Source of the DNA: Clostridiales bacterium
GTDB lineage: Bacteria; Bacillota; Clostridia; Lachnospirales; Lachnospiraceae
Length of the DNA: 64,000 nucleotides
NCBI GenBank assembly: GCA_023663185.1
Contig: JAMPHY010000011.1
Coordinates: 52,139-116,138 of the forward strand
Reading direction: 5' to 3'
In this document: positions 2-9,911 of the stretch, one piece after another
Numbering within the stretch: the first letter of the stretch is position 1
Layout: each line of letters starts with the position of its first letter
Notes under the pieces: generated by a model
Databases searched by the model: none
The model's input: only the letters and a program-made list of their open reading frames with translations
Told to the model about the DNA's origin: nothing
Position numbers and translations under genes: made by a program

Positions 2-3000
2 GGTACAGATAGTTCTACGCCGGATTCTATGTATAGAAAGGATAAAAATAATTATTTGGTTTTATCCGAAAGCGATTATTCAATGGGTGCTATTGGGGCA
101 AAGGCATTTGCCGGAGTGCAGAATGTAATTAATATGACAATTCCTACCATGATTAATTATATTGGAGATGAAGCGTTTCTTGAAGCAGGTCTGATTGAAA
201 GTATTGATATTGCAAATGTTAAACAGATAGGAAACAGGGCATTTAAGAATTGCTATCATTTGTCTAAAGTTGTTATGGGAGAGGGCGTTAATGATATTGG
301 ACAGGAATGTTTTGCCAATACCGCGATTTCCACGATAGCGTTACCGAGCTCAATCAGTGAGATAGGAAGCGGCGCGTTTGCGAACTGCAGCGATATGACG
401 GCTGTGGATTTCAGTAAGTTAAGCGGTTGTATTATTGATGATTATGCCTTCTTTAACTGTACTGCACTCAGGGAAGTTGATATGTCTAATGCCGGAATTA
501 CTCAAATACGTAATGCCGCATTTGCAGCGGATTCAGGAGTATTAGAGAAATTTACCTTCCCACAGAGAGATAATCTCATGAATGCAAAGGACAGTATCGG
601 CGACTATTTGTTTGCGGGACGTTCCAGCTTAAAAACCGTAATATTCCCGAAGAGCTACGGAAGTAATGCGAGAATCAGCACTAAATTACCAGACAATATG
701 TTCCACGGTTGTATCAATCTGGAATATGTAGAGTTTCCGGCTAATTATGTCAGCGCTCCGAATGCCTGTGCGTTTGTCAATTATGATCCAGAAAAGTTGT
801 TTAGAGATGTAAGAGGTTCTAAACTCTATGTAAGGGGACCGGCGGAACATAATGGGGCTCCGGATTCAGACGGTGATATAACGGCATATCCGCGTAAGTG
901 CACATGGGACGCCCTTACTGCCGATAATGGTTATAAGGTACCGTATTTATATATGGATTCGAGCGGAAAGGAATATTATGAAGTCAGCGACGGTAAGTAC
1001 CTGCTTTGTATTCAGAAGAATGCGGACGGACAGACCGGAACGCTTGTTTCGTGTAAATTTAAACCAAGAAGCGCTGAAAGAAATATTAACTTGACAATAC
1101 CGGCAATGGTCGGAGATACAAAGGTAACGGCTATTGCATCAAATTGTTTTAGCGATAAGAAGCTTAATGGTGAGGTAGTATCGCTGACGATTGAGGACGA
1201 ATCCGTTTCTACGATTGCTGACAGCGTATTTAAAGGCTGGCCTAAGCTTGCCAAAGTATATATAGGCAACTCGATTACATCGATAGGAAGAGAAGCGTTT
1301 GCAGATTGCAATAATCTCGTGGACGTTACATTTAATTCGCCGCTGAATAATAATCATGCGGGCTTTACGATAGGTACGGATGCTTTTAAGACCGGAAGTT
1401 CCAGACTGACATTCCACGGCGATATAGTAGAAGGTTATGCGCCGTTTGAATGGGCGACTGACCCTAATAATATTATTAAGCAGCCTGAGGGTATTCGTGT
1501 ATGTTATAAGAGTCTTACGCCTACATACCTTACTGTAATGTATAATCCTAATACTGAGCTTGTTACTTTATTGGATTATCCTAAATACAATCAGGTAAGC
1601 GATGTGCTTAATGAAGTGCATGAGCGTGAGTTCTATGATTCCGACGGAAAGCGGATATATAATTCATATGAGGATATGATGGAGCAGCGTTCATATGCAG
1701 ATTATAGCGACGGATATTATGACGGTAACAGAACGGCTTTTGCGAACGCATGGAAAAACGCACTTACGCCGGCAGACAGAGAGGCTCTTTATGAGTCTGA
1801 TGATTATGGACCGTGGATAAATCCTGATTTCTGTAATCCCAAGAGTGATTTATATTGGGAGAAAAAATGGGTTACTTCATCAAGTGGCGGCGGAAACACA
1901 GAGAATACTGATCCTGATAACACCAGTAGCGGAAGTACGGGTACTGATCCTGACAATACTAGCGGTGGAAGCACGGAGAACTCCGGTGAAAATAATGGTG
2001 GAGAAGGCGATGGTAGTGATGTTTCAGCCATAAATAAGCTTGCCGACTGGTTGTTTGAGCCTATTGTCGCTTATGCGGCGGACGTAGATCCAGTACCGTA
2101 TTATTCTCGTTCCGGTAACGAGTACGACGTAGTAAAATATTCGGAAATGACGAACAGGAAGCCGTGGCAGACTACAACATCGGAAGCTGATGCATTGATC
2201 AATGCAACCAAAACGATAGTTGTTCCTGCCGGAGTAGATTCCATCGATGTATACGGATATTATAATAATCTGGATATAGACGGCAACGAACTTGAAGTAA
2301 AAGCAGCGGATAACCTTGAGAATGCTAAACAGTATTTGACAGGTGCATATGGTTGTTGGGATACAGATACCATCAAGATGTATACTCTTGAGTCCGTGAA
2401 GGACGAGGATAATATTAACAGCGTTCCGGGACTTTTCAGTGGTAATTATGACGATAAGGCGGGAGAAGGCAAAGAAGAACGCACAAGAGGAAACGACCGA
2501 ATTATAAGCGTGACCTTGAACAGCGTAAAATATCTGCCGGATTATGCCTTCGATAGCTGCGAGCAGTTGACTTCGGTTATTCTTGGACCGGATTGTGCGG
2601 ATATCGGCACGGCGCCGTTCCGTGGCTGCCATTCATTGAAGGCGGTAGGAGATAACGATTATTATAAGACTAATAACGGTATAGTTTATTCTGTAAATCC
2701 GGACGGAAGCTATACGATTGAAGAATGTCTGTGGGCGAGAGGTCTTGCAGGCGGAGTTGGCGAGGCGCAGGTAAGCCTTTCCACAGATGAAAATCTGGGT
2801 ATGGTAAGTACAATCAAAGACGGTGCGTTTGAAGACTGCGATAATATAACGCTGGTTGACTTAACTAATACGGCGGGACTGGTTGATATACCTGACAGAT
2901 GTTTCAAGAACTGTGATAATCTTAACAGAATATGGCTGCCGGGTACTGTAAACAGTATTGGTGAAGAGGCATTTGCAGGGGCTAATCAGCTTAGCGAACT

Positions 3001-4552
3001 GCAGATTCCGGGTAAAGAAGTATTTATTTCGGGCAATGCGTTTGACACTAATAAGTTAGCGACTACAAGCGTATATACATCGGAGGATTCATCAGCAAAA
3101 AGATATGTTGATACTTACGGGAGACAATATAAGCTTGAATGGCATAAGAAGGATAACTGGCGTGTTATCTTCTTGGACGCTGATTTACAGCAGATAGGCA
3201 AAGAGCAGGTTGTTGATGATGGCGCTTATGCGGAAATACCGGAGGATCCGGTAAAAGAGGACTGGGTATTTGATAAATGGCTTGGAACTAATAATGCGGA
3301 TCCCAAGAATCCTATTCATGCTGATACAACTTTCGTAGCGACAGGTTATTCCACAAGCTCTATGGTGGACGGTAAATATACGGTTGACTTTATGGATCAG
3401 GTTGACGGCACTATATTCAGTACTCAGCTTGTAGAACCGGGTGGAGATGCGATTATACCTCAGGCTCCGACGCATGCAGGATATACCTTCCTTAGATACG
3501 GAGGTGATTCGCTTACTAATATTCAGAAGAACTCGATAGCGCTTGCCATGTACAGCGGCGGTACGGGAACAGGCGTTAATGGCGGAAACGGCACGACAAG
3601 CGGTTCGTCTTCGTCTACGCAGACCAGTAGTAATTCCAGTAGTTCAGGCAGCTCGACCTCTTCATCGACGTCAGATGGTGCTAGAAGTGTCAGCAAGTAT
3701 ACCGTAACCGTTATCAACGGAAGCGGAAGCGGTACTTATGATGCAGGAAGCACTGTAATAATAGCTGCGAATACGCCTGCAACTGGAAAAGTATTTAAGA
3801 ATTGGACTACGGAATCACCGGGAGTAACGTTTGCAAGCGTAAGTCTTTCGGCAACTACGTTTATAATGCCGGATAATAACGTAACAGTTACGGCTAATTA
3901 TGTGACCGGTTCAAGCAATACATTGACAGGCGTTTCAACTAATGGAAATACCGGCAATAATAGTAACAACGGCAATACAAGAGTAGATATTACCAAGCCG
4001 GGTATCAGTAATAAGGATTTGGCTACGGCGAAGGTCAACGGCTCGACAGATAACTTTGTTGTAAAGATTTCCGAGACGCCGGAGGCGACGCAGGCGGTAA
4101 TGAATGCGTTGACTAATAAATACGGCAATCTTGACAGTGTGCTGTATTATGCGATGGATATCAGTCTGTATGACTCTACGGGTACGGTAAAGATTTCCGA
4201 TACTACAGGACTGACAGTGGATATTACCATTCCGATACCTGACGCATTGACTGTCTTTGGCGGTAATAACATGGCTGGCGCAGTAGTAGCAAACGACCAA
4301 CTGGAAGATTTGAGCGAGCGCTTCTCGACGATTAACGGCGTGCCTTGCATAAGCTTTACGGCGACTCACTTCTCACCGTATACGGTTTATGTTAATACAC
4401 AGCAGCTTTCAGACGGCGCGCTTGATATAACGCCGAAGACCGGAGATCCGATTCATCCGAAGTGGTTCTTGTCGCTTGGTCTTGCATGTATGTCCGTAAT
4501 ACTGTTTATGAAGAAGGACAAAAAGCCTGTAAAAGTTAGAGCCCAAAAATAG
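2..4552 (+). CDS. Partial surface-anchored BspA-type leucine-rich-repeat protein
   Basis: The frame is already open at base 2, and no ribosome binding site precedes the first Met at base 29, so this is the 3' part of a longer gene (1,516 residues present). BspA/LRR_5 repeats, with the recurring pattern AFxxCxxLxxV, fill roughly 60-800, 1090-1430 and 2490-3060. They are followed by two InlB B-type (Listeria-Bacteroides) repeats at about 3160-3300 and 3370-3500, a Ser/Thr/Gly linker (3590-3680), a divergent InlB B-repeat (3690-3905) and a C-terminal module ending in HFSPYTVY. The tail is PKTGDPIHPKW, a hydrophobic helix and a Lys-rich end, which resembles a sortase-type anchor with a variant motif. 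An extracellular adhesin or host-glycan contact protein is inferred, not shown. A paralogue starts 23 bases downstream. Confidence 0.88.
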   Translation, partial: GTDSSTPDSMYRKDKNNYLVLSESDYSMGAIGAKAFAGVQNVINMTIPTMINYIGDEAFLEAGLIESIDIANVKQIGNRAFKNCYHLSKVVMGEGVNDIGQECFANTAISTIALPSSISEIGSGAFANCSDMTAVDFSKLSGCIIDDYAFFNCTALREVDMSNAGITQIRNAAFAADSGVLEKFTFPQRDNLMNAKDSIGDYLFAGRSSLKTVIFPKSYGSNARISTKLPDNMFHGCINLEYVEFPANYVSAPNACAFVNYDPEKLFRDVRGSKLYVRGPAEHNGAPDSDGDITAYPRKCTWDALTADNGYKVPYLYMDSSGKEYYEVSDGKYLLCIQKNADGQTGTLVSCKFKPRSAERNINLTIPAMVGDTKVTAIASNCFSDKKLNGEVVSLTIEDESVSTIADSVFKGWPKLAKVYIGNSITSIGREAFADCNNLVDVTFNSPLNNNHAGFTIGTDAFKTGSSRLTFHGDIVEGYAPFEWATDPNNIIKQPEGIRVCYKSLTPTYLTVMYNPNTELVTLLDYPKYNQVSDVLNEVHEREFYDSDGKRIYNSYEDMMEQRSYADYSDGYYDGNRTAFANAWKNALTPADREALYESDDYGPWINPDFCNPKSDLYWEKKWVTSSSGGGNTENTDPDNTSSGSTGTDPDNTSGGSTENSGENNGGEGDGSDVSAINKLADWLFEPIVAYAADVDPVPYYSRSGNEYDVVKYSEMTNRKPWQTTTSEADALINATKTIVVPAGVDSIDVYGYYNNLDIDGNELEVKAADNLENAKQYLTGAYGCWDTDTIKMYTLESVKDEDNINSVPGLFSGNYDDKAGEGKEERTRGNDRIISVTLNSVKYLPDYAFDSCEQLTSVILGPDCADIGTAPFRGCHSLKAVGDNDYYKTNNGIVYSVNPDGSYTIEECLWARGLAGGVGEAQVSLSTDENLGMVSTIKDGAFEDCDNITLVDLTNTAGLVDIPDRCFKNCDNLNRIWLPGTVNSIGEEAFAGANQLSELQIPGKEVFISGNAFDTNKLATTSVYTSEDSSAKRYVDTYGRQYKLEWHKKDNWRVIFLDADLQQIGKEQVVDDGAYAEIPEDPVKEDWVFDKWLGTNNADPKNPIHADTTFVATGYSTSSMVDGKYTVDFMDQVDGTIFSTQLVEPGGDAIIPQAPTHAGYTFLRYGGDSLTNIQKNSIALAMYSGGTGTGVNGGNGTTSGSSSSTQTSSNSSSSGSSTSSSTSDGARSVSKYTVTVINGSGSGTYDAGSTVIIAANTPATGKVFKNWTTESPGVTFASVSLSATTFIMPDNNVTVTANYVTGSSNTLTGVSTNGNTGNNSNNGNTRVDITKPGISNKDLATAKVNGSTDNFVVKISETPEATQAVMNALTNKYGNLDSVLYYAMDISLYDSTGTVKISDTTGLTVDITIPIPDALTVFGGNNMAGAVVANDQLEDLSERFSTINGVPCISFTATHFSPYTVYVNTQQLSDGALDITPKTGDPIHPKWFLSLGLACMSVILFMKKDKKPVKVRAQK

Positions 4553-4575
4553 CATAAGATACATAGGGGGCGCCT

Positions 4576-7287
4576 ATGGGAAAAAAGATTAGTAAGGCAT
4601 TAGGAGCTGTTTTGATGGCGATAGCGATTGCCGTTACACAGATACCTGTTCCAGATGTAGAAGCGGTGGATACCGCTTCTGCATCTGAATTTCAAATGTC
4701 GGGAACAACGTTAGTTAAGTACAACGGCACGGCTGCGAACGTGTCTATTTCTGATTATGTGGAAAAAATAGAGTCGCAGGCGTTTGCAGGAAATGAGTAT
4801 GTGCAGAGTGTAGTAATCGGCAGCAATGTAGAGAGTATCGGTACGGCGGCGTTTGAGGACTGTAGCGCGCTTACTTCGGTATCTATACCGGATTCAGTTC
4901 TGTCCATAGGGAGCGCAGCGTTTGCCGACTGTCCTAATCTTAAGGAAGTAGGCATAGGCAAAGGACTTGAAACCTTAGGCAACGGCGCTTTTGCAGGAGA
5001 TATCAGGCTAAAGAGCGTCAATATAAGCAGTGAAAATCCATATTTTACATGTTATGATGGTGCAATCTATAGTAAAGTAGACGGTGGGATTTTGTATGAC
5101 GTACTTTCGGGAAGGCAGGAAAAAAGCTATACGATGCCCTCTAGTGTCAACAAAATAATGCCATATGCTTTCTGGGGAGACAGATTTCTTGAAAATGTCG
5201 CGATAAGCGGCAATGTATCGGAAATATCCGCATATGCTTTTTCTAACTGTTCTAATCTTAAAAATGTAGATATTCCCTATTCAGTAAGAACAATAGGCAT
5301 GAAGGCGTTTGAGAATTGTATCAGGCTGCGCAATATTACGATACCTATTTCTGTCGGTACGATTCACAGCACGGCGTTTGACGGCTGTACGAAGCTTACG
5401 ATTGACGCTGTACCGGGCAGCACCGCGAAGTCGTTTGCGGATAATCTGGTGCTTGAAGATATAGACGTATCTGAATATGAGGATACGGACTTAGATACTA
5501 TAAACGATATCGGCGCTGATACGTCGGATACGGATAATTCGAGCAGCGATGTGCCATTGGATTATTATCATGAGGTGACTCATATTAATTCGATGGAGGA
5601 CGAAGAGGAGGATTCCGTTAAGGGCAAGGCTAAAATTGTTGGCAGTCAGGTCTTTGTTTTTGTCGATAATACCGCGGCGACGGTTAATTCCGGCGTACCG
5701 GATTTAAGTAATGTAGAAGGCGTGGTTTTCGGCGAGACCGGAGAAACGATAAGCGATATTGACAATAGTGTTGTAAAGGGAAGCTCTTTCCCAAAATACG
5801 AGATTATAGATAATAAAGTTATTGCTAATCAGGCGTATTACAATAACAAGAGTGAAGATATTGCGATACCGGATACAATTACGGAGATAGGCGAGTTTGC
5901 TTTTGCAAGGTCGAAGATTACTTCTGCCAAGCTTCCGGAAGGTCTTACGAAAATAGGATATGCGGCTTTTTATCATTGCGACGGATTGACTGATGTAGTC
6001 ATTCCTTCTACGGTGACGGAAATAGGATCTTCGGCTTTTGATAAGACGCCGTGGCTTCAGGATTGGGAGCAGAACGGAGCAGGTGATTTTCTAATAGTCG
6101 GAGATGGTATTTTGCTTAAATACCGTGGCAGTAACGCCGATGTAACGATACCCGATGGAGTAAAAACGATAGGCGCGGGCGCGTTTTCCGGCAATTCGGG
6201 CATTAAGAAGGTTATTTTCCCAAACAGCGTAGAAATTATAGGCGAAGGGGCGTTCTCAGGCTGCAGCAATTTATCGGATATAGAAGGCGGTAATTCATTA
6301 AGGAAAATCAGCGACAGGGCGTTTGCAGGCTGTCCAATGCAAACCATAATAATTCCGGAGTCTGTGGAGGAGATAGGACTTAAGGCTTTTGCGGTAGCGG
6401 ATTCTGTAAAAAAGGCAAATATTGGGACCGTGATTTTTGAAGGTTCTTCTCTGCCTGTTCTTACGTATGAAGCTTCTTCCTGTAAATTATATAATGATTC
6501 ATATATGGGGCTTGCATTTGAAGGCGTGAATACTGCGATTATACCTGATGATGTTGAGGATTTGGAAGGCACGATTTTAGATGAGCGCGTATATGGTTTC
6601 AGAGGCGTAATCAGCAGCGAGAGTGGCAGCTTTTCGCGGGATACTTCTATGGTATCGGTTGATTTGGAAAGAGAGTTAGAAGCAATAGGACCGTCTGTTA
6701 CAGTCAGCGTAAGCGGTAATTCATTAGACGCTGCAGAAGACGCAAGCGCGTCATTGGACGGAGCTGAATCCACATATTTACTTAATATAATGGAAAGCGA
6801 AGAGGCAAAGGATACCATTCTTGAAGCATACGGTAAGCTGTATGGGGATAATATGCCCTCTAATTTATCAGCATATGACATAACTCTGTATGATATGAAA
6901 ACAGCGGTTCCTATTATAAGTCTTGGCAGACAGAAGATTGAGATTACTATTCCTTTACCTGAGGGAATGGTCGAAGAAAATCTGCATGTTATCTGTACGG
7001 ACGCAAACGGACAGCTAGAAGAGGTGGGAAGCAGCGTATTTTCCACAAACGGTGTGGAATATTTGACATTTTCATCGAATCATTTTTCACCGTATGCGAT
7101 ATATAATTATGCGTCGGGCGAAGCGGTTTCCATAGTTGACGGTAAGGCGGTATTTTCTACGGGAAATAAAGATGCGTCTCCTAATACCGGCGACAATAGT
7201 ATCCACCCGAAATGGATTCTCTGCATAGGTTTTCTCTTCACAGGTCTTGCCCTGTTCTTTTATGGCGGTAAGCAAAGAAAGGCTTAA
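4576..7287 (+). CDS. Surface-anchored BspA-type leucine-rich-repeat protein
   Basis: This 903-residue protein begins with a signal peptide (Lys-rich start, hydrophobic residues 8-22, likely cleavage near residues 30-37). BspA/LRR_5 repeats follow in two blocks, about residues 50-280 and 410-640, separated by an acidic Asp/Glu/Ser stretch. Residues 740-850 match the C-terminal module of the upstream gene, ending HFSPYAIY, and the end is SPNTGDNSIHPKW, a transmembrane helix and a basic tail. The start is fixed by a G-rich ribosome binding site just before ATG 4576. With only 23 bases separating it from the upstream paralogue, co-transcription is likely. A secreted, wall- or membrane-anchored binding protein is inferred; no sortase is encoded in the window. 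Confidence 0.88.
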   Translation: MGKKISKALGAVLMAIAIAVTQIPVPDVEAVDTASASEFQMSGTTLVKYNGTAANVSISDYVEKIESQAFAGNEYVQSVVIGSNVESIGTAAFEDCSALTSVSIPDSVLSIGSAAFADCPNLKEVGIGKGLETLGNGAFAGDIRLKSVNISSENPYFTCYDGAIYSKVDGGILYDVLSGRQEKSYTMPSSVNKIMPYAFWGDRFLENVAISGNVSEISAYAFSNCSNLKNVDIPYSVRTIGMKAFENCIRLRNITIPISVGTIHSTAFDGCTKLTIDAVPGSTAKSFADNLVLEDIDVSEYEDTDLDTINDIGADTSDTDNSSSDVPLDYYHEVTHINSMEDEEEDSVKGKAKIVGSQVFVFVDNTAATVNSGVPDLSNVEGVVFGETGETISDIDNSVVKGSSFPKYEIIDNKVIANQAYYNNKSEDIAIPDTITEIGEFAFARSKITSAKLPEGLTKIGYAAFYHCDGLTDVVIPSTVTEIGSSAFDKTPWLQDWEQNGAGDFLIVGDGILLKYRGSNADVTIPDGVKTIGAGAFSGNSGIKKVIFPNSVEIIGEGAFSGCSNLSDIEGGNSLRKISDRAFAGCPMQTIIIPESVEEIGLKAFAVADSVKKANIGTVIFEGSSLPVLTYEASSCKLYNDSYMGLAFEGVNTAIIPDDVEDLEGTILDERVYGFRGVISSESGSFSRDTSMVSVDLERELEAIGPSVTVSVSGNSLDAAEDASASLDGAESTYLLNIMESEEAKDTILEAYGKLYGDNMPSNLSAYDITLYDMKTAVPIISLGRQKIEITIPLPEGMVEENLHVICTDANGQLEEVGSSVFSTNGVEYLTFSSNHFSPYAIYNYASGEAVSIVDGKAVFSTGNKDASPNTGDNSIHPKWILCIGFLFTGLALFFYGGKQRKA

Positions 7288-7389: not shown

Positions 7390-8280
7390 ATGTATCGCGT
7401 TAGAAAACAATTAGGCTGCAGTGACAGGCTGCAGCAATCGTGCAGTGGTAATCCGGTGACGGTAGCGATTTTGGACACAGGCATCTATATGCATCCCGAT
7501 TTATCGGGAAGGATAGTGGAGTTTAAAGATTTTGTCAACTATAAAAGCAGAATTTATGATGATAGCGGACATGGAACCCATATTGCAGGTTGCGTCGGGG
7601 GGAGCGGCGTTATATCAGCCGAAAGATATAAGGGCATAGCTCCGCAATGCTTTTTCTGTATAGGGAAGGTTTTAGACAGCAATGGTGATGGAACAATCGA
7701 AAGTATGTATCACGGAATGATGTGGGTATTGCAGAATCGTGTCAATTATAATATCAGAGTCTTAAATATATCGGTCGGTATAGGTGAACTCCGTGAAGAG
7801 AGAAAAATTGAAGAATTATTGGATATTATTGAAGCAGTCTGGCGTTCGGGCATTGTCGTAGTATGCGCGGCAGGTAACGCAGGACCAAAAGAAGGTACGA
7901 TATCTCCGTTAGGAAACAGTCGTTATGTAATCACGGTAGGCTGTCATGAAGGGGGATATTTCGGGAACAAGAAAGGTTTATGTGAAAATTATTCGGGGCG
8001 GGGAGACAATGATATATTATATAGAAAACCTGATGTGGTAGCGCCGGGGACGGATATTATGTCCTGTAGTAACAGAGGCAGCTATTATGTAAAAAAGAGC
8101 GGAACTTCGATGGCGACTCCGATTGTCTCAGGTGCGGCGGCGCTGCTTCTGCAAAAATATCCTGACCTTAATAATAACCAAGTCAAGCGGAAAATCATCT
8201 ATAGTGCTAAGGATTTGGGAGAACCATGGAATAAACAGGGCTGGGGTATGTTGGATATTGGTAGACTTATACGAGGATAA
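7390..8280 (+). CDS. Subtilisin-like (S8 family) serine protease, cytoplasmic type
   Basis: The catalytic triad of the S8 family is visible: Asp29 in ILDTG, His61 in HGTHIAG and Ser240 in GTSMATP, with the oxyanion Asn163 in AAGNAGP. At 296 residues the protein is only the peptidase domain. There is no signal peptide and no recognisable inhibitory propeptide, which resembles intracellular subtilisins or short Clostridia subtilases. ATG 7390 is preferred because GGGAG lies six bases upstream and the next in-frame Met is too close to the catalytic Asp. It follows two surface LRR genes in the same direction, but the hairpin between them suggests separate expression. The substrate cannot be read from the sequence. 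Confidence 0.92.
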   Translation: MYRVRKQLGCSDRLQQSCSGNPVTVAILDTGIYMHPDLSGRIVEFKDFVNYKSRIYDDSGHGTHIAGCVGGSGVISAERYKGIAPQCFFCIGKVLDSNGDGTIESMYHGMMWVLQNRVNYNIRVLNISVGIGELREERKIEELLDIIEAVWRSGIVVVCAAGNAGPKEGTISPLGNSRYVITVGCHEGGYFGNKKGLCENYSGRGDNDILYRKPDVVAPGTDIMSCSNRGSYYVKKSGTSMATPIVSGAAALLLQKYPDLNNNQVKRKIIYSAKDLGEPWNKQGWGMLDIGRLIRG

Positions 8281-8304: not shown

Positions 8305-8333
8305 TTGACATATTTAATTAAAAATCGTATAAT
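8305..8333 (+). promoter_or_regulatory. Strong sigma-A promoter of the structured RNA / nuclease locus
   Basis: TTGACA (8305-8310), a 17-base spacer and TATAAT (8328-8333) match the consensus exactly. Transcription would start near 8340, immediately before the structured RNA. Confidence 0.88.
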
Positions 8334-8339
8334 AATAGT

Positions 8340-8516
8340 GTAAAGACAGGCAACGGTGAGTGTCTGTCAGGTGTTGAGATAAGATGTTGCGTCAGCGAGC
8401 CGCGTCTTATTGAGCCTTTGAAGGGTTGTATGTAGACCTCAAGCTGACTTTATGCGTGCAGGACGCGCAGACAGAAAACATTCAGAAGAGCTCTGTTTTA
8501 TACAGGGCTTTTCTTT
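8340..8516 (+). ncRNA. Structured RNA of unknown class ahead of a nuclease-domain gene
   Basis: Between the promoter and the next gene lies about 175 bases that fold into a branched structure. The visible helices are: outer TGTCTG (8361-8366) with CAGACA (8468-8473); GTCAG/TTGAG (8367-8379) with CTCAA/CTGAC (about 8438-8448); a long hairpin closed by ATAAGA and TCTTAT (8379-8411); a short hairpin CCTT/AAGG (about 8415-8424); and GCGTG/CGCGC (about 8453-8468). The RNA ends in a clear intrinsic terminator, 18 bases before the start codon of the nuclease-domain gene. I do not recognise a known riboswitch, SRP, 6S or T-box signature. Either a leader that controls read-through or a free small RNA is possible. 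Confidence 0.7.
8486..8516 (+). terminator. Intrinsic terminator closing the structured RNA
   Basis: AAGAGCTCTG (8486-8495) pairs with CAGGGCTTTT (8503-8512) around a 7-base loop, with a T-rich tail. It sits between the RNA and the ribosome binding site of the downstream gene, so expression of that gene needs read-through. Confidence 0.8.
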
Positions 8517-8533
8517 ATAATACGGAGGATTTT

Positions 8534-9115
8534 ATGGATAAATTACAGGAACGTGCATTGACATTTAACGAACTAATGAAATATCAGTATGACATCAAGC
8601 TTGGCAAAAAAGGTAAATTATATGAGTTTACTATCGACTTTCAACCGAGTGATTTTTTTCATTTGATTGGGCTGCAAAAACTCATAGACTTGCGGTTTCT
8701 CAAACGCTCTGCTGAACATATCTTTAATGAGTGCTTAAAAGGAAATATTACATATTCAATGATTGCGGCAAGCCAGTATTTTGATGAACTTGGTTATAGA
8801 TTTGAATATTTCAATCAGCTTGAAAACATATTAGACAGCAATAATCTTATTTTCAAATTCAATAAAAACTCAATGCAAATCTATTCAAAGATTATAGCTG
8901 ATTATATGTTAAAACATACAAGAGATGATTTAATTTTCTATTTATTCATCGAGCAAAGAAATAAATCAAATACTCAGTTTTGTAAATCATTTTTTGAAAA
9001 CAGCGTTATCGATTATTCGCGAGGTCAGACAAATTTGACCTTGCTGTATAAAGGAAAAATAAATATCAGAACAGGCGAAAGAGAAATAAAATTTGATAGG
9101 CTTACACAGGGGTGA
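8534..9115 (+). CDS. PBECR4-like (BECR-fold) putative nuclease-domain protein
   Basis: This 193-residue soluble protein resembles the PBECR4 family (phage-Barnase-EndoU-ColicinE5/D-RelE-like nuclease 4). The main resemblance is the early segment FTIDFQPSDFFHLIGLQKL followed by a helical middle and a C-terminal beta-rich part. Such proteins are predicted RNA-cleaving toxins or effectors; activity here is inference. ATG 8534 is chosen because GGAGG lies six bases upstream; the frame extends to a TTG at 8426, but that would run through the structured RNA and its terminator. It has no partner gene of its own: upstream is a promoter, a structured RNA and a terminator, and downstream another promoter starts a GntR gene. 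No antitoxin protein is visible. The family call is from motif memory and needs a profile search. Confidence 0.6.
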   Translation: MDKLQERALTFNELMKYQYDIKLGKKGKLYEFTIDFQPSDFFHLIGLQKLIDLRFLKRSAEHIFNECLKGNITYSMIAASQYFDELGYRFEYFNQLENILDSNNLIFKFNKNSMQIYSKIIADYMLKHTRDDLIFYLFIEQRNKSNTQFCKSFFENSVIDYSRGQTNLTLLYKGKINIRTGEREIKFDRLTQG

Positions 9116-9215: not shown

Positions 9216-9911
9216 ATGAATAATTATGATATCAGAAATACGATGAATGATAATTATTCCCTGAGCGGCAGAGTATTCCGAAAGATACGAGAGGACATTC
9301 TGAGCGGTAAATATAAGGAGCATGAGGAATTAAAAGAGGTAGCGATAGGTGAAGAGCTGGGCGTAAGCCGGACGCCTGTGCGCGAGGCGTTCAGACAGTT
9401 GGAATTAGAGGGCTTAATTCAGATTATTCCGAATAAAGGAGCGTATGTAACAGGGATTACGGCAAAAGACGTCAAAGATATATATATGATACGTTCTTTG
9501 TTAGAAGGCTTATGCGCCAGACTTGCTACCGAAAAAATTACTAAAGAGCAGATGGAGGAGATGGAAGAGAATATCTATCTGGCGGAATTTCATGCAGATA
9601 AAGGTCATATGGATCAGATGGCGGAGCTTGATAATCGTTTCCATGATATTCTCTATGAGGCATGTGATTCCAAGCTGCTTGAACAGCTTCTTAAGGATTT
9701 CCACCAGTATGTGCTGCGCGTGAGGCAGAAAACGCTCTCGGCAAATATCAGGGGACGGGAATCGAATAACGAACATAGGCATATTATGGAGGCGATTAAA
9801 GCAAAAGACGCAGCGAAAGCTGAAGAACTCGCCAACAAACATATAATAAACGCATATGATAATATGGTAAAAAATGGGCTATATGACGTATATAAAGACG
9901 AGACAGCTTAA
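9216..9911 (+). CDS. GntR-family transcriptional regulator, FCD (FadR) subfamily
   Basis: The N-terminal third is a winged helix with the GntR signature (IGEELGVSRTPVREAFRQLE, then LIQIIPNKGAYV). The C-terminal part is an all-helical FCD ligand-binding domain with the expected metal-binding Asp/His positions (for example LDNRFHDILYEA and a late EHRHIMEAI). The length of 231 residues is normal for the subfamily. AAAGGAG lies 13 bases before ATG 9216, a rather long spacing. It precedes the isocitrate dehydrogenase gene by 21 bases in the same direction, so it probably controls that gene in response to an organic acid such as citrate, and itself through the operator at 9141-9152. The ligand is inference. 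Confidence 0.9.
   Translation: MNNYDIRNTMNDNYSLSGRVFRKIREDILSGKYKEHEELKEVAIGEELGVSRTPVREAFRQLELEGLIQIIPNKGAYVTGITAKDVKDIYMIRSLLEGLCARLATEKITKEQMEEMEENIYLAEFHADKGHMDQMAELDNRFHDILYEACDSKLLEQLLKDFHQYVLRVRQKTLSANIRGRESNNEHRHIMEAIKAKDAAKAEELANKHIINAYDNMVKNGLYDVYKDETA

What the first reader, a model, noticed from the sequence alone, without database searches (positions are those of the whole stretch)
8305..9115. Structured RNA with its own promoter and terminator directly ahead of a PBECR4-like nuclease gene
The order promoter, branched RNA, terminator, possible RNase gene is the order of type III toxin-antitoxin systems, where an RNA made in excess binds the toxin and the terminator sets the ratio. 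The RNA here is not made of tandem repeats and the nuclease is not a ToxN-like protein, so it would be a new arrangement; a riboswitch-like leader that controls read-through is the other reading. At least five helices can be drawn by hand, two of them long-range, so the structure is unlikely to be chance. No protein antitoxin is nearby.
Basis: partly seen in the sequence, partly recalled or inferred. Interest (0 to 1): 0.78.

Follow-up and report, generated by a model that had tools for sequence, protein, structure and literature searches.

The report
Orphan RNA paired with toxin-like gene
A folded RNA of unknown function, catalogued as "drum", sits directly ahead of a predicted toxin gene in many bacteria and on some plasmids, and some phage contigs carry the RNA without the gene, so it is probably the gene's RNA antidote.

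Summary
Window 8305-9115 holds a consensus promoter, folded RNA, terminator, ribosome-binding site and a 193-aa PBECR4 gene (PF18813, E 1.8e-34). The RNA is Rfam's drum (RF02958, 77.3 bits), extended here by a conserved 5' hairpin; the papers I could read give it no function. The pairing is general: 77 of the 80 PBECR4 loci kept by a protein-only search have a drum upstream, as do all 5 plasmid loci opened, of 21 records. RNA type follows the PBECR4 tree. Many PBECR4 genes without drum carry other RNAs, one with three covarying pseudoknots and no Rfam match. Of 48 bacterial drum loci 23 have an intact gene, 9 a broken one, 14 none. Of 20 viral records with a drum match 17 lack PBECR4; in 12 of these 17 a tRNA gene lies within 600 nt. 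Best reading: a type III-like toxin-antitoxin module with an unrelated toxin and RNA; phage orphans may be antidotes. Toxicity, binding and nuclease activity are untested; structure prediction was off.

The parts
8305..8333 (+). sigma70-type promoter: TTGACA (8305-8310), 17-nt spacer, TATAAT (8328-8333)
   Evidence: read directly. In relatives a promoter with at most 3 mismatches precedes the drum in 74 of 75 loci, 22.4 expected from shuffles
8345..8368 (+). hairpin P0 (GACAGGCA / TGTCTGTC, 8 bp), conserved but outside the Rfam model
   Evidence: 6 of 8 pairs with changes on both sides in A5, 5 of 8 in A2
8369..8486 (+). drum RNA core (Rfam RF02958); P1 8369-8372/8414-8417, P2 8379-8390/8399-8410, P3 8424-8427/8435-8438, P4 about 8451-8469
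   Evidence: 77.3 bits against gathering score 43; alignment shown; pairs counted. P3 is nearly invariant, so covariation says nothing about it
8392..8447 (+). pseudoknot: P2 loop TCAG (8392-8395) with CTGA (8444-8447)
   Evidence: 4 of 4 pairs with changes on both sides, 95.8% of cells paired and 95.2%
8428..8483 (+). long-range helix P5: P3 loop (8428-8433) with the 3' end (8478-8483), crossing P3; one of the six pairs is a mismatch in the window
   Evidence: 5 of 6 pairs with changes on both sides in each alignment, but only 70.0% of cells paired in A2 and about 80% in A5
8489..8516 (+). intrinsic terminator between RNA and gene
   Evidence: read directly. A terminator in this gap in 66 of 75 related loci, 4.5 expected from shuffles
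8524..8529 (+). ribosome-binding site GGAGGA
   Evidence: read directly
8534..9115 (+). PBECR4-family gene, 193 aa, ATG start, no stop inside; the putative toxin
   Evidence: PF18813, 120.2 bits, E 1.8e-34, profile positions 1-187 of 188

Best explanation
[quoted passage not shown] Transcription starts at the promoter at 8305-8333. Most transcripts stop at the terminator at 8489-8516 and yield an abundant drum RNA of about 150-175 nt; a minority read through and yield PBECR4. The pseudoknotted drum RNA binds PBECR4 and holds it inactive. When transcription is disturbed, for instance by an infecting phage, the RNA is lost first and the free protein, probably an RNase of the kind its family name suggests, stops growth. 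Shown: the anatomy, the conserved RNA fold, the specific pairing of RNA and protein, the survival of the RNA without the gene, and orphan RNAs in viral contigs. Inferred: read-through ratio, RNA-protein binding, toxicity, nuclease activity and antiphage role.
For: Pairing: 77 of the 80 genome loci kept (of 170 relatives found) by a protein-only search carry a drum upstream on the same strand; among 48 bacterial drum loci found by RNA alone, 32 have PBECR4 homology directly downstream. A separate set: 5 of 5 plasmid loci opened (of 21 records; Enterococcus and Streptococcus) exceed Rfam's drum threshold just upstream, though three of the five are nearly identical. Co-diversification: RNA class changes 8 times on the PBECR4 tree, 31.1 in shuffles, as low in 0 of 200. 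Trans action: two extra promoter-drum-terminator cassettes without a gene in L151, a tandem cassette in L175, viral orphans. Asymmetry: 23 intact, 9 broken, 14 undetected PBECR4 after drum, whereas L070, L118, L123 and L126, drum-clade genes without a full drum, are truncated or broken. Architecture: 66 of 75 terminators, 74 of 75 promoters. Parallel: the C. difficile AbiF system has the same promoter-ncRNA-terminator-toxin layout with neutralisation in cis and in trans (PMC12373285, abstract and first part of the discussion read).
Against: No experiment shows toxicity or RNA binding. L172 and L176 have full or nearly full PBECR4 matches with no drum found upstream; in L172 transposase-like sequence precedes the gene, L176 is unexplained. 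In the 14 control genomes PBECR4 is found in 1 (Lactococcus lactis) and drum in 0. Promoter-like sites are common in AT-rich DNA (22.4 of 75 shuffled). Some loci are near-copies: 78 of the 83 matches are distinct, and some of the 80 loci are ones the model was built from.
Confidence: 0.72

Rival explanations
1. Drum is an RNA cofactor or sensor: PBECR4 is active only as a ribonucleoprotein, and the RNA recognises an infection signal rather than simply neutralising a toxin.
For: The RNA class tracks the protein tree, the fold is elaborate, and AbiF, an RNA-bound protein, is reported as the origin of Cas13 (PMC12373285 discussion).
Against: The RNA persists where the gene is broken or absent and in viral records without the gene; extra gene-less RNA cassettes fit dosage of an antidote better.
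Confidence: 0.14
2. Drum is a cis-acting leader, riboswitch-like, that only sets read-through of the terminator into PBECR4.
For: A terminator lies between RNA and gene in 66 of 75 loci, and the RNA is upstream on the same strand in 77 of 80.
Against: Orphan drums near viral tRNA genes and directly after an endolysin gene have no PBECR4 to regulate; stand-alone cassettes. Rfam types drum as Gene; sRNA, not Cis-reg. Other PBECR4 branches have other RNAs.
Confidence: 0.09
3. Drum has a phage or tRNA-related role of its own, and PBECR4 is parked beside it without functional interaction.
For: Many viral drums lie near tRNA genes, and RNA ligase genes lie about 1 kb away in L092 and L100 and about 6 kb away in L086.
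Against: Chance adjacency cannot give 77 of 80 pairings, the plasmid replicate or the agreement of RNA class with the protein tree.
Confidence: 0.05

Closest known systems
drum RNA, Rfam RF02958
   Same: The window RNA is a member (77.3 bits). A k-turn of drum folds in Mg2+ and binds L7Ae (PMC8191799, passages read).
   Different: The drum passages I read in four papers give no function. Here it is tied to PBECR4 and extended by the 5' hairpin P0. The discovery paper (Weinberg 2017, recalled) is not held.
AbiF-RCd22 of Clostridioides difficile (abiF motif RF03085)
   Same: Promoter, ncRNA, terminator, toxin gene; the RNA neutralises in cis and in trans by binding the protein (PMC12373285).
   Different: AbiF is an Abi_2/HEPN protein with a 36-37-nt RNA motif; the window protein gave no Abi_2 match up to E 1 and the RNA no abiF-motif match.
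Type III toxin-antitoxin systems (ToxIN, CptIN, TenpIN; the last two names recalled; general features from abstracts in the listing)
   Same: RNA antitoxin ahead of an RNase toxin; one PBECR4 branch has two similar GUUG-CAAC pseudoknot units in its RNA. A terminator between the two parts is recalled for type III.
   Different: Drum is one complex fold rather than tandem repeats, and the protein gave no ToxN-type match in Pfam up to E 1.
PBECR4, Pfam PF18813
   Same: The window gene is a member.
   Different: Pfam describes it as a nuclease-like family; no held paper names PBECR4 or PF18813. The RNA partner is new as far as those searches show.

Membership tests
drum RNA RF02958 | score over the curated threshold with the consensus fold | tested here: met
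   77.3 bits against 43, full length 1-112
PBECR4 PF18813 | score over the gathering cut-off across the domain | tested here: met
   120.2 bits against 27, positions 1-187 of 188
PBECR4 PF18813 | BECR nuclease fold and RNase activity | not testable with these tools
   structure prediction switched off; no PDB relative by sequence
Type III toxin-antitoxin system | RNA gene upstream of the toxin gene, shared promoter, terminator between | tested here: met
   window read; 74 of 75 promoters, 66 of 75 terminators in relatives. Transcription itself not tested
Type III toxin-antitoxin system | antitoxin RNA made of tandem repeats | tested here: not met
   one drum in the whole window; copies of the whole cassette seen in L151 and L175
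Type III toxin-antitoxin system | toxin of the ToxN/CptN/TenpN kind | tested here: not met
   no such Pfam match up to E 1; a comparison of folds was not possible
Type III toxin-antitoxin system | RNA binds and neutralises the toxin | not testable with these tools
   needs expression and binding experiments
AbiF RNA-toxin system | Abi_2/HEPN toxin with abiF RNA motif | tested here: not met
   no Abi_2 match up to E 1, no abiF-motif match
Riboswitch / cis-regulatory leader | RNA found only ahead of the gene it regulates | tested here: not met
   14 of 48 bacterial drum loci have no PBECR4 detected after them (3 of these have tiny remnants by eye); 17 of 20 viral records hold none

The most novel reading that the evidence does not exclude
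PBECR4 is a broad family of toxins each held in check by its own structured RNA, with the RNA partner replaced several times in evolution (drum, a three-pseudoknot RNA, and further unnamed RNAs). Phages fight back by carrying orphan drum RNAs, matured within their tRNA arrays or expressed behind lysis genes, as RNA antidotes. An Rfam orphan RNA would thus be both an antitoxin and a viral counter-defence RNA.
Probability: 0.5. Interest if true: 0.92.

Novelty: new variant of a known kind. Interest (0 to 1): 0.83.

Why it matters
It gives a testable function to an orphan RNA family whose passages, as far as I could read, report only structure. It links a Pfam family described as nuclease-like to RNA control, adds an unrelated protein to the promoter-ncRNA-terminator-toxin design known from AbiF, and points to phage-borne RNA antidotes as a form of counter-defence that protein-based searches would miss.

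Tried and rejected
Riboswitch: Rfam finds only drum at gathering threshold in the whole window. ToxN or AbiF relative: no Pfam match up to E 1. Known defence protein: no PADLOC match for 4 PBECR4 proteins. Solved structure by sequence: only a nanobody at E 0.55. Structure prediction: switched off. Named phages: no PBECR4 by tblastn at E 0.001 with the window protein, and no match to two viral drums by blastn, so the phage side rests on IMG/VR contigs. A protein search of viral contigs with the drum-clade alignment gave 2 relatives, both with a drum. Class II RNA in viruses: one locus, L135, with PBECR4 after it, so orphaning was seen only for drum. My terminator detector missed long-loop terminators: 24 of 46 PBECR4 loci without a drum scored, 2.9 expected from shuffles, 17 of 102 other genes; 7 of the 53 loci given to that script were left out for want of a protein model or upstream room. 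L087 (24 bits) is probably a chance hit. The drum discovery paper is not held, so earlier notice of the PBECR4 neighbour cannot be excluded.

Full report
What is there. Window 8305-9115 reads, in order: TTGACA-N17-TATAAT (8305-8333), a folded RNA (8339-8488 by the model made here, in which the window copy is one of the 25 rows), a terminator (8489-8516), a ribosome-binding site (8524-8529), and a 193-aa gene from ATG 8534 to a stop ending at 9115. The RNA is drum, RF02958, 77.3 bits against a gathering score of 43. The protein is PBECR4, PF18813, 120.2 bits, E 1.8e-34. Upstream lies a subtilase gene (7390-8280), downstream a GntR/FCD regulator (9216-9911).

The RNA fold. I aligned 25 drum loci, extended upstream to include a hairpin (P0) that the Rfam model lacks (A2). 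On 43 pairs, 85.6% of cells are standard pairs, 30 pairs have changes on both sides, and covariation is 0.508 against 0.252 in shuffles. I chose the structure by inspection of these sequences. A second alignment of 83 matches (78 distinct), fitted to the nested part of the model but not to the pseudoknot or P3, gives 89.8%, 34 pairs and 0.503 against 0.252. The pseudoknot between the P2 loop and the strand before UAG covaries at 4 of 4 pairs in both. P3 is nearly invariant, so covariation says nothing about it.

Pairing, by RNA. In 250 genomes of the window's family Rfam drum occurs 27 times in 22 genomes. PF18813 was sought in the same 250 (65 rows in 44 genomes). By coordinates, 20 of 27 drums are followed on the same strand within 150 nt by PBECR4, 1 runs off its contig and 6 have no such hit. 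In 341 genomes of the class there are 23 drum rows in 17 genomes (one row below threshold, two rows the window's own genome again), 12 with PBECR4 directly after. Together these are 48 distinct drum loci. A six-frame profile search of the 1,000 bases after each gives 23 intact PBECR4, 9 broken, 14 none and 2 at contig ends; L021 counts as intact but its start may be shifted. Three of the 14 (L017, L025, L051) show tiny remnants of the gene by eye. In the 14 control genomes drum is found in 0 and PBECR4 in 1, Lactococcus lactis.

Pairing, by protein. A protein-only search of public genomes found 170 relatives and kept the best 80. The RNA model finds a drum upstream on the same strand in 77 of 80. 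The misses are L140 (5'-truncated match, the same upstream sequence as L070), L172 (transposase-like sequence ahead of the gene) and L176 (unexplained). In 75 of the 77 (L150 and L205, cut at the contig end, were left out) a promoter with at most 3 mismatches is present in 74 (22.4 in shuffles) and a terminator in 66 (4.5 in shuffles).

A separate set. Tblastn found PBECR4 in 21 plasmid records, 20 of Enterococcus and 1 of Streptococcus, 5 of the 21 predicted conjugative. I opened 5 of the 21. All 5 carry a drum over Rfam's threshold (46.4-51.8 bits against 43) 41-57 nt ahead of the annotated gene. Three of the five upstream stretches are identical or nearly so, so this is about three independent cases. 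One lies beside an AbiH-family gene.

Copies of the RNA alone. L151 has two further promoter-drum-terminator cassettes after its gene, and L175 has two tandem cassettes before it. In L055 a drum follows directly after an endolysin gene. A DNA pattern scan of viral contigs gave 17 loci, a second scan 59 stretches, the first set among them. In 59 loci given to it the model keeps 21 matches in 18 loci (L095 and L102, same drum as L089, were scored). Of 20 viral records searched whole as held, 20 contain a drum match at E 0.001 and 3 contain PBECR4, one of them broken, so 17 lack it. Of the 17, L087 (24 bits) is probably chance and L090 is weak (34-35 bits). Several others are close relatives by their drum sequence (L089, L095 and L102; L225 and L229; L092, L093, L096, L099 and L100), so independent lineages are fewer. 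The records may be fragments. In 12 of the 17 a tRNA gene lies within 600 nt (L086, L092, L093, L094, L096-L101, L225, L229). In L086 one drum lies 8 nt after tRNA-Phe and 3 nt before tRNA-Tyr, and in L098 the drum match ends where tRNA-Val starts. L089, L090 and L102 have no tRNA gene in the stretch held; L087 and L095 were not scanned. RNA ligase genes lie about 1 kb from the drum in L092 and L100 and about 6 kb in L086. Phage nature is supported by terminase and portal genes in L102 and an anti-repressor in L097; otherwise it rests on IMG/VR.

Other RNAs for other PBECR4 branches. Many PBECR4 genes without drum have other RNAs upstream, judged by eye; a few (such as L118 and L126) show none. 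One type (class II) has a 5' hairpin and two GUUG-CAAC hairpins whose loops pair with three tails. On 17 sequences 99.8% of 425 cells pair, 10 of 25 pairs have changes on both sides, and covariation is 0.288 against 0.128; further pair types are not above shuffles (99 of 500 as high). Of the 19 sequences, L072 and L110 were left out because of an insertion; L073, L105, L108 and L109, assigned to the class by eye, were not aligned. The structure was drawn from these same sequences. In the 20 loci scanned, Rfam has no match to it up to E 0.5. The window's own genome has six PBECR4 rows, two with drum and two (L003, L008) with class II. On a tree of 61 PBECR4 proteins the RNA classes, assigned by eye and by model, need 8 changes, 31.1 when shuffled, as low in 0 of 200; 26 drum-paired proteins and L070 form one group.

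How it most likely works. The layout is that of AbiF-RCd22, where one promoter serves both parts, most transcripts stop at the terminator, and the RNA binds and neutralises the toxin in cis and in trans (PMC12373285, abstract and first part of the discussion read). By analogy drum is the antitoxin of PBECR4. The stand-alone cassettes, the survival of the RNA beside broken genes, and the viral orphans argue for action in trans. Viral orphans near tRNA genes and RNA ligases fit a counter-defence role against a tRNA-cutting nuclease; this last step is inference.

Limits. No structure could be predicted, no solved relative was found by sequence, and no experiment was done. Papers: RF02958 occurs in four held papers, three listed, on RNA folding methods or the Rfam database; I read their drum passages and those of PMC8191799. 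PBECR4 and PF18813 occur in none. The discovery paper of drum is not held.

Noticed in passing
L003, L008, L035, L036, L037, L040, L063, L067, L069, L082, L103, L104, L106, L107, L112, L119, L135 (upstream of PBECR4): An RNA with three hairpin loops each pairing with a tail (pseudoknots), ahead of PBECR4 genes that lack drum; no Rfam match in those scanned.
   Followed up: partly
L079, L116, L120, L122, L124; L006, L068, L114, L115, L117; L130, L132; L077, L078, L085: Further upstream RNAs, grouped by eye, ahead of other PBECR4 branches; L077 and L085 score as remote drums below Rfam's threshold.
   Followed up: partly
L086:10535-11700: Three drum matches (the third weak, 25.5 bits) interleaved with tRNA-Tyr and tRNA-Phe genes in a 104-kb viral contig.
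   Followed up: partly
L092, L093, L100: A phrog_850 (RNA-binding) protein, DUF2828/DUF7788 by Pfam in the L092 copy, lies within about 5 kb of the orphan drum.
   Followed up: no
L277: PBECR4 with drum directly beside an AbiH-family gene on a mobilizable Enterococcus plasmid.
   Followed up: no
L167:1020-1179: A second RNA-like cassette just ahead of the drum cassette, only weakly drum-like (24 bits).
   Followed up: no
L078:1097-1214: A SAM riboswitch near a PBECR4 locus.
   Followed up: no
29-7287: Two large ORFs (1507 and 903 aa) that look like repeat-bearing surface proteins stand upstream of the subtilase gene.
   Followed up: no
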